Source of the DNA: Candidatus Tanganyikabacteria bacterium
GTDB taxonomy: Bacteria > Cyanobacteriota > Sericytochromatia > S15B-MN24 > VGJW01
Assembly: GCA_016867235.1 (NCBI GenBank)
Contig: VGJY01000017.1
Coordinates: 1-38,832 of the forward strand
Reading direction: 5' to 3'
DNA length: 38,832 nucleotides
Made by a program: the position numbers and the translations under genes. Under the pieces are notes generated by a model. It saw only the letters and a list, made by a program, of their open reading frames with translations. It searched no databases and was not told where the DNA came from. This document shows, one piece after another, positions 9 to 36,844 of this stretch (positions are counted from its first letter, which is position 1; each line of letters opens with the position of its first letter).

Positions 9-130
9 GCGGCGCTCAAATGACCTGGCGCCTATCGGACGCAGGCACGGAGGCCTGCGCCACCGATGCAACGGGTGGGGCCGGCCTCCGTGCCGGCCGC
101 GATGCCGGAGCGAAGTCATCAGAGCCGCGC
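9..130 (+). repeat. Palindromic MITE/REP-like element, copy 1
   Basis: This 122-bp block recurs almost base for base at 15760-15880; I count one single-base indel and three substitutions. The left end (GCGGCGCTCAAATGACCTGG) and the reverse complement of the right end match at about 18 of 24 positions, giving imperfect terminal inverted repeats around the shared core AATGAC. Inside, GCAGGCACGGAGGCC pairs with GGCCTCCGTGCCGGC, and CCACC pairs with GGTGG, so nearly the whole element folds into one long hairpin. It contains no ORF of its own. It lies downstream of the clpX stop codon. The architecture suggests a miniature non-autonomous element; that mobility is an inference. Confidence 0.8.
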
Positions 131-15759: not shown

Positions 15760-15880
15760 GCGGCGCTCAAATGACCTGGCGCCTACGGACGCAGGCACGG
15801 AGGCCTGCGCCACCGAAGCAACGGGTGGGGCCGGCCTCCGTGCCGGCCGCGATGCCGGGGCGAAGTCATTAGAGCCGCGC
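15760..15880 (+). repeat. Palindromic MITE/REP-like element, copy 2
   Basis: Same element as at 9-130, about 97 percent identical and in the same orientation, inserted two bases after the gatB stop. Flanking sequences differ completely from copy 1, so the ends are well defined: GCGGCGCTC on the left and GAGCCGCGC on the right. Both ends carry AATGAC in inverted orientation as part of the imperfect terminal repeats. Confidence 0.85.
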
Positions 15881-35428: not shown

Positions 35429-35605
35429 TGTCGACACGAATCGGTGAAAAGTCCACCTGCTGTGGCAGGAGGTTCCGATTCAGGCACTTCGGTCCTTCCT
35501 TCCGAGGAAGATCAGTACCAGGTGCCAGGAAGATTCGATGGGTCGTGAGATCGGCCGAATCTTCCAGCGAGCGCCCGAACCTTCCGAGGGTTCGGGCGCT
35601 TTGCG
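35429..35605 (+). ncRNA. Probable small structured RNA, family not recognised
   Basis: About 175 bases with helices tiling almost the whole length. GAATCGG (35438-35444) pairs with CCGATTC (35475-35481) and encloses CCTGC/GCAGG (35456-35460, 35465-35469). GGCAC (35483-35487) pairs with GTGCC (35522-35526), enclosing CTTCGG with CCGAGG. GGAAGATTCG (35528-35537) pairs perfectly with CGAATCTTCC (35556-35565). The last helix is a 12-bp terminator-like stem. A promoter lies upstream and no ORF fits. GGTGAAAAGTCC resembles the cobalamin riboswitch core, but other core elements are absent. I see no match to 6S, SRP, tmRNA or RNase P RNA. Confidence 0.5.
35570..35604 (+). terminator. Strong terminator-like hairpin closing the structured RNA
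   Basis: AGCGCCCGAACC (35570-35581) pairs perfectly with GGTTCGGGCGCT (35589-35600) around a seven-base loop, followed by a short TT run (the TTTG begins with the last paired base). The T-tract is poor, so termination may be partial. Confidence 0.6.
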
Positions 35606-35668
35606 CGTGACATAACCAAGCAATCGGCCTGCAATATTCGTGCAATCTTTCGGTTGCATTCTAGTCAC
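35606..35668. other. Intergenic segment with 11-bp-spaced TGCAAT repeats
   Basis: TGCAAT appears at 35630 and 35641, exactly 11 bp apart (TGCAATATTCG, TGCAATCTTTCG). The second pairs with TTGCA at 35654-35658. GTGAC (35606-35610) and GTCAC (35664-35668) enclose the whole segment. It has no coding potential. It could be a regulatory site between the small RNA and the hairpin array. Confidence 0.3.
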
Positions 35669-35717
35669 ATAAGCGCAAGGGGACTGCAACGCACGGCGTG
35701 CGGGCCCCGGGGGGTAG

Positions 35718-35881
35718 GCGGCCGGGCGCGCGAGCGGGGCCGCCGGAGGAGATGTTTACGCGGCCGGGCGCATTCGATGCGGGGCCGCGAGGCTAGAGCG
35801 ATGCCTGCAGCCGGGCGCCATGTTTGCGGGGCTGCCGGATTCGCACGCCTGGAGTAGGCCGGGCGCCTTGTAGGCGGGGCC
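35718..35881 (+). repeat. Array of four tandem hairpins with covarying stems
   Basis: Units at 35718-35743, 35759-35789, 35807-35835 and 35857-35881 share one design: outer stem, GGGC, inner stem, short loop, inner stem, GG, outer stem. The outer stems are GCGGCC/GGCCGC in units 1 and 2, GCAGCC/GGCTGC in unit 3 (a compensatory G-C to A-T pair change) and GGCC/GGCC in unit 4. The inner stems also vary, for example GCAT/ATGC in unit 2 and GCC/GGC in unit 4. Loops and spacers differ in sequence and length (15-21 bases), so the units are not simple copies. No reading frame keeps phase across them. Confidence 0.75.
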
Positions 35882-35916
35882 AAGCTGGGGCGAACCAGTT
35901 GCGTTGGGGGAAGTCA

Positions 35917-35947
35917 GCGCGGTCCCGGCGACCGATCGGGACCGCGC
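35917..35947 (+). promoter_or_regulatory. 11-bp leader hairpin before the lipoprotein gene
   Basis: GCGCGGTCCCG (35917-35927) pairs perfectly with CGGGACCGCGC (35937-35947) around a nine-base loop. It ends six bases before AAGAGGAGG, the ribosome binding site of the gene at 35969. No T-tract follows, so it is a leader structure or operator, not a terminator. Confidence 0.55.
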
Positions 35948-35968
35948 GCCTGCAAGAGGAGGCTTTGC

Positions 35969-36844
35969 ATGTCAAAGAAGTTCGTGCTGGCGGCCGCATT
36001 GGTTGCCGCGTTCACCACGGGTTGCACCGGTCCGGTCTCGGGCGTGTCCCCGGGCAAGACCTACCGGTCGCAGGCTACCTACGGCGCCGGCTACGGCCAG
36101 GCCGCCCAGCCGGAGCAAGCCGGAACGACCGGCGTCCGCAACGTCATCTCGCTGAGTGGCGACGCCAGCGGACCGTCCGGCACGCTCGAGGTCTCGCTGG
36201 AGCTGGCGAAGGCCGATCGCGGGCTCCTGGCCCTCCCCGAGGGTACCGACCGGGTCCTGATCACGATCGCTTCGCCGAAGCTCGATGCCCCGCTCCGCCA
36301 GGAGATCCGCCGGAGTCAGTTCGTGGGCGGCGTCGCGAAGATGATCGTCACCAAGCTCCCGCTCGGCCAGACGAAGGTCGGCTGCGAGGTCTTCGACGAT
36401 GCCGGCGCGCTCATCACCCAGGGGACCTCCGGCGCCGTCGTCACCGCCGACACGATCAGCCCGGTCAAGATCGACCTGGTGGTCAAGGAAGCCACGGGCG
36501 GCCTGGCCATCTCCGTCGATACCAAGAAGCAGTATGCCGACAAGCCGGAAGTGTACTTGCCGCCGGACACGCTCACCGGCCTGACGGGCGCCCTCGATGG
36601 CGACGCCGCGCCGCACCATGCCTCCAAGCCAACCAAGAGCGAGCGGATGTACGACACCGGCATGAAGGTCTACGCCGGCCAGATCGTGGACTTTCGCGGC
36701 CTCGGCAAGATCACGACCACCAAGCGCCTTTACGCGGTCGTCGTGAGCGGCGCCACGACTCGCGTGATCGACGTGCGCATCACCGAGACGACCAAGCTCA
36801 AGATGCCGGTGGCCGGCAAGCTCTGCCTGATGGCCTTGCTGTAA
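35969..36844 (+). CDS. Lipoprotein, unknown function
   Basis: A 291-residue protein with ATG at 35969 and AAGAGGAGG about six bases upstream. The signal peptide MSKKFVLAAALVAAFTTGC carries a clear lipobox (TTGC, Cys19). The mature protein starts with a flexible Gly/Tyr/Gln linker, then beta-rich sequence (GTLEVSLELAKADRGLLALPEGTDRVLITIASPKLD, TKLPLGQTKVGCEVFDDAGALIT, SPVKIDLVVKEATGGLAISVD). This is compatible with Ig-like or carboxypeptidase-regulatory-like beta sandwiches. I recognise no named family. It sits behind 600 bp of structured non-coding DNA and is followed by its own terminator, so it is probably monocistronic and individually controlled. Confidence 0.8.
   Translation: MSKKFVLAAALVAAFTTGCTGPVSGVSPGKTYRSQATYGAGYGQAAQPEQAGTTGVRNVISLSGDASGPSGTLEVSLELAKADRGLLALPEGTDRVLITIASPKLDAPLRQEIRRSQFVGGVAKMIVTKLPLGQTKVGCEVFDDAGALITQGTSGAVVTADTISPVKIDLVVKEATGGLAISVDTKKQYADKPEVYLPPDTLTGLTGALDGDAAPHHASKPTKSERMYDTGMKVYAGQIVDFRGLGKITTTKRLYAVVVSGATTRVIDVRITETTKLKMPVAGKLCLMALL

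What the first reader, a model, noticed from the sequence alone, without database searches (positions are those of the whole stretch)
35718..35881. Four tandem hairpins with compensatory stem changes, no known family
Four units of the same unusual architecture (outer stem, GGGC, inner stem, loop, inner stem, GG, outer stem) stand in a row. Unit 3 changes GCGGCC/GGCCGC to GCAGCC/GGCTGC, which keeps pairing; inner stems also vary while still pairing (GCAT/ATGC, GCC/GGC). Loops and spacers are free. That is the signature of selection on structure, with a conserved asymmetric internal loop that could be a protein or ligand binding site. It sits between a probable small RNA and a lipoprotein gene and is not in phase with any reading frame.
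Basis: seen in the sequence. Interest (0 to 1): 0.8.

Follow-up and report, generated by a model that had tools for sequence, protein, structure and literature searches.

The report
Orphan array of four tandem hairpins
Just ahead of a lipoprotein gene in one bacterium stand four look-alike RNA-type hairpins, each with the same small internal bulge; they are far too regular to be chance, but no other searched genome has them, so they look like an isolated regulatory leader whose function is untested.

Summary
Four hairpins lie at 35717-35744, 35759-35789, 35807-35835 and 35857-35881 (+). They share the core GCCGGGCGC-N4/7-GCGGGGC: 4 in the window against 0.03 expected in shuffles. Each folds as outer stem, internal loop GGG/G, inner stem, loop. 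Three pairs change on both sides; register-slid controls show none. Spacers do not align, loops are free, and units are out of codon phase.

There is no comparative support. A covariance model finds only these four units in 18 class and 146 phylum genomes. Rfam has no match. The one detectable lipoprotein relative, distant and cut off, lacks units.

Best reading (0.40): a 5' leader element of the lipoprotein mRNA, four equal binding sites for an unknown RNA-binding protein or ligand. Main rival (0.22): a local group of GTAG-type REP-like palindromes. The genome's own ~650-copy REP/BIME family is different in sequence.

The parts
35717..35744 (+). hairpin unit 1: 7-bp outer stem, GGG/G internal loop, 3-bp inner stem, GCGA tetraloop
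   Evidence: preceded by GTA(G)
35759..35789 (+). hairpin unit 2: 7-bp outer stem, GGG/G loop, 5-bp inner stem, 3-nt loop
   Evidence: z -2.70 alone
35807..35835 (+). hairpin unit 3: 6-bp outer stem with G-C to A-U change (plus a mismatch and 2 further pairs), GGG/G loop, 3-bp inner stem
35857..35881 (+). hairpin unit 4: 4-bp outer stem, GGG/G loop, 5-bp inner stem
   Evidence: preceded by GTA(G)
35917..35948 (+). strong G+C-rich hairpin between the array and the ribosome-binding site; no T-tract
   Evidence: -26 kcal/mol, z -3.93; one search found no terminator-like site
35607..35635 (+). possible promoter for the leader: GTGACA-17-TGCAAT (9 of 12), in the relatively A+T-rich stretch before the array; weak
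   Evidence: the consensus scan found none
35969..36844 (+). downstream gene, 291-aa putative lipoprotein (signal peptide with ...FTTGC), GAGGAGG ribosome-binding site just upstream; no Pfam, NCBIfam or PADLOC family

Best explanation
The array is a cis-acting RNA element in the 5' leader of the lipoprotein mRNA. Transcription would start in the A+T-richer stretch around 35640-35690, after the terminator of the preceding small-RNA-like element, and run through four hairpins that each present the same GGG/G internal loop. An RNA-binding protein or a ligand would recognise the loop, and four copies would give avidity or a graded response. Occupancy would set the stability or translation of the lipoprotein message, whose ribosome-binding site follows a further strong hairpin. 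Shown: the four hairpins, their invariant core, kept pairing, unalignable spacers, and position between a terminator-like hairpin and a gene on the same strand. Inferred: transcription, binding and regulation.
For: Four copies against 0.03 expected, 0.02 in local shuffles. Three pairs change on both sides, register-slid controls zero. The asymmetric loop GGG/G is kept in all four, which a symmetric DNA-binding dimer would not need. Spacers are no more alike than shuffled ones while the 16 core bases are invariant. The array is intergenic, not coding, same strand as the downstream gene and its ribosome-binding site.
Against: No copy at any other locus or genome searched, and no units before the one detectable lipoprotein relative. 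Whole-region folding is not better than shuffles. Promoter evidence is weak. Three covarying pairs from four units is a small sample (85 of 500 shuffles reach the number of extra pair types, 23 of 500 the covariation score).
Confidence: 0.4

Rival explanations
1. A local head-to-tail group of REP-like palindromes (GTAG type), recognised as single-stranded DNA hairpins by a REP-associated tyrosine transposase, with any RNA role secondary.
For: Size (25-31 nt), stem lengths and an irregular stem fit GTAG-type REPs (PMC3733652, PMC8266576). Units 1 and 4 carry GTAG at the stem base. The genome encodes Y1_Tnp proteins and has a REP/BIME family, so the machinery exists.
Against: Only four copies, all at one locus and one orientation, where REPs are high-copy. 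Units 2 and 3 lack GTAG. The resident family (GGTGGSGCNGGCCTCCRTGCC, about 650 sites) is a different sequence. The flanks of the three Y1_Tnp genes hold no clear unit.
Confidence: 0.22
2. The array is itself a stand-alone non-coding RNA, or is processed into hairpin RNAs, rather than a leader of the lipoprotein gene.
For: Repeated identical cores suit a sponge or a multi-site RNA; a strong hairpin follows at 35917-35948.
Against: No terminator with a T-tract after the array; ribosome-binding site and gene follow directly on the same strand.
Confidence: 0.13
3. Double-stranded DNA sites for a transcription factor: each unit carries two direct copies of GCSGGGC (GCCGGGC and GCGGGGC) 13-16 bases apart.
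For: The two core halves are near-identical direct repeats, and the array lies upstream of a gene.
Against: Does not explain outer arms outside the core that stay complementary, including the G-C to A-U change; the GGG/G asymmetry breaks dyad symmetry.
Confidence: 0.12
4. No present function: the remains of a local duplication whose hairpins persist by accident or by short gene conversion.
For: No relative shows it; one genome only.
Against: Spacers have diverged beyond recognition while 16 core bases are identical in four copies; neutral decay would not do that.
Confidence: 0.1

Closest known systems
GTAG-type REP elements and BIMEs (repetitive extragenic palindromes with RAYT/TnpA-REP)
   Same: Short intergenic palindromes of 20-40 bases with an irregular stem; units 1 and 4 have GTAG at the stem base; groups of elements 20-100 bases apart are known (PMC3733652).
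   Different: Four copies at one locus only, all head to tail, half without the tag; the genome's own high-copy family is different in sequence.
Tandem riboswitch aptamers and tandem-hairpin leaders (recalled from general knowledge: mini-ykkC / guanidine-II)
   Same: Repeated small hairpins in what looks like a 5' leader before a gene.
   Different: No Rfam match; conserved bases sit in an internal loop, not the terminal loop; four units; no known ligand context.
Type III toxin-antitoxin loci (ToxIN)
   Same: Tandem RNA repeats, then a hairpin, then a gene on the same strand.
   Different: The downstream gene is a putative lipoprotein with no match to a Pfam, NCBIfam or PADLOC family, not an endoribonuclease; the repeats share only the hairpin core, not the spacers.

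Membership tests
GTAG-type REP elements | GTAG (or close variant) at one end of the palindrome | tested here: inconclusive
   Present at the stem base of units 1 and 4, absent in 2 and 3
GTAG-type REP elements | high copy number dispersed in the genome | tested here: not met
   Only the four tandem units reach significance in the genome; only the best 150 and 47 first-look candidates were scored there
GTAG-type REP elements | association with a RAYT/TnpA-REP gene | tested here: inconclusive
   Three Y1_Tnp genes in the genome, none with clear units nearby
Known structured RNA families (Rfam 15) | score above the family's gathering threshold | tested here: not met
Type III toxin-antitoxin | ToxN/CptN/TenpN-type endoribonuclease gene downstream | tested here: not met
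   No Pfam, NCBIfam or PADLOC toxin match for the 291-aa product
Cis-acting mRNA leader element | transcribed as part of the downstream mRNA | not testable with these tools
   No expression data; position and strand only
Cis-acting mRNA leader element | structure conserved before homologous genes in related genomes | tested here: inconclusive
   The only clear homologue found (G003, 42% over 105 aa, truncated) has no units upstream, but it is distant and no other genome of the genus is held

The most novel reading that the evidence does not exclude
A previously undescribed RNA motif, a hairpin with a conserved GGG/G internal loop, used in four tandem copies as an array of binding sites (protein or ligand) in the leader of a lipoprotein mRNA in a poorly studied, probably cyanobacteria-related lineage.
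Probability: 0.3. Interest if true: 0.6.

Novelty: new variant of a known kind. Interest (0 to 1): 0.36.

Why it matters
If transcribed and functional, it would be a new, unusually regular multi-site RNA element outside all curated families, in a lineage with little experimental RNA work, and the four natural variants already show which positions may change. If it is REP-like, it is a useful case of palindromes confined to one intergenic region.

Tried and rejected
Rfam at gathering and relaxed thresholds: nothing on the array. Fixed-spacing and gapped patterns in the own genome: the fixed one ran below its reversed control; the gapped one gave 9 hits outside the array against 5 for the control, and the printed ones lack most of the architecture. 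Viral contigs gave 35 stretches, with no array of hairpins with outer stems among them. The DNA-level match in G004 (L216, E 1.4e-4) does not form the unit structure. A looser tandem pattern across the class ran near its reversed control in most genomes; the own genome had 65 against 34. That excess was not followed up; array self-matches explain only a few. NsiR1-like tandem sRNAs were considered from memory, but the library holds no paper with the three search terms.

Full report
Observation. The window carries four units of one architecture at 35717-35744, 35759-35789, 35807-35835 and 35857-35881 on the + strand. The shared core, GCCGGGCGC-N4/7-GCGGGGC, is found four times, all here, with 0.03 expected in shuffled sequence. 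A scan that demands only the shape (outer stem of 4 or more, GGG, inner stem of 3 or more, G) and not the stem sequence finds these four and nothing else on either strand. Local dinucleotide shuffles average 0.02 and none of 5000 reaches three.

Anatomy. Each unit alone folds as described. Outer stems are 7, 7, 6 and 4 pairs. Loops differ: one unit has a GCGA tetraloop, the others 3-7 bases. Of ten counted pairs, three change on both sides; sliding the partner by 1-3 columns gives none. Six pairs never vary, so they say nothing either way. Spacers are no more similar than shuffled ones, so a recent tandem duplication cannot explain the invariant core. Unit cores start at 0, 0, 2, 2 modulo 3, so this is not a coding repeat.

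Limits of the structural case. The whole stretch does not fold better than shuffles (z +0.70 for 35713-35890; -1.93 for 35700-35970, where the strong hairpin at 35917-35948 contributes). In the minimum-energy fold of the array alone, units 1 and 2 form and units 3 and 4 pair otherwise. The case therefore rests on repetition plus covariation in four sequences from one genome.

Context. Upstream are an L-glutamate gamma-semialdehyde dehydrogenase gene and a well-folded element with a terminator-like last hairpin at 35432-35606 (z -5.93). Then comes a stretch poorer in G+C with at best a weak promoter (none by the consensus scan), then the array, a strong G+C-rich hairpin, the ribosome-binding site and a 291-aa putative lipoprotein gene with no family match. 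This order suggests a leader of roughly 270-330 nt, but transcription is not shown.

Related sequences. The window lies in a 6.1-Mb, 514-contig genome; no other genome of its genus is among those held. I infer from the sizes of the phylum's other genomes that this is a non-photosynthetic relative of cyanobacteria; the tools did not name it. A covariance model of the four units finds only them in 18 genomes of the class (E at most 3e-4; next best 0.1) and in 146 of the phylum. The lipoprotein's best relative (G003, 42% over 105 aa, cut by a contig end) has no units upstream. DNA comparison of the leader gives no homologue with the structure. The array is therefore an orphan at the depth of sampling available; conservation within the genus could not be tested.

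REP question. The genome has a dispersed palindrome family, GGTGGSGCNGGCCTCCRTGCC, with about 650 sites against none for the reversed control, often in inverted pairs 9 bases apart, and three Y1_Tnp genes. One of these, in L214, looks like a RAYT and has copies of that family just upstream. The array units are not members: the sequence differs and they are confined to one locus. Units 1 and 4 do have GTAG at the stem base, the tag of the GTAG REP super-family (PMC3733652), and an irregular stem is a recognition feature in E. coli REPs (PMC8266576). That keeps a REP-like origin as the main rival, but two of four tags and a copy number of four do not meet the definition.

Judgement. I rank a cis-acting leader RNA with four equal binding sites first (0.40) because the asymmetric loop and kept pairing point to a single-stranded nucleic acid, and strand and position point to the lipoprotein mRNA. 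A REP-like group comes second (0.22). Stand-alone RNA, DNA operator array and functionless remnant share the rest. The finding is real and unexplained, but without a second genome it stays a candidate.

Noticed in passing
window 35432-35606 (+): A 175-nt element of four successive hairpins ending in a terminator-like long hairpin folds far better than shuffles (z -5.93); no Rfam match and no clear homologue in 17 relatives. Probable small RNA.
   Followed up: partly
window 44-94 and 15794-15844; whole genome; L214: Dispersed REP/BIME family GGTGGSGCNGGCCTCCRTGCC, about 650 sites in the genome, often as inverted pairs 9 bases apart; three copies stand just before a RAYT-like gene in L214.
   Followed up: partly
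window 35917-35948 (+): Strong G+C-rich hairpin directly before the lipoprotein gene's ribosome-binding site, without a T-tract (z -3.93).
   Followed up: partly
window about 35752-35857 (+): Two very short ATG reading frames (MFTRPGAFDAGPRG and MPAAGRHVCGAAGFARLE) run through units 2 and 3, the first right after GGAGGAG; probably chance.
   Followed up: no
L072:5588-5775: Sorangium cellulosum carries a 42-base tandem repeat with the same core sequence but no extended outer stems; it looks like a low-complexity coding repeat.
   Followed up: partly
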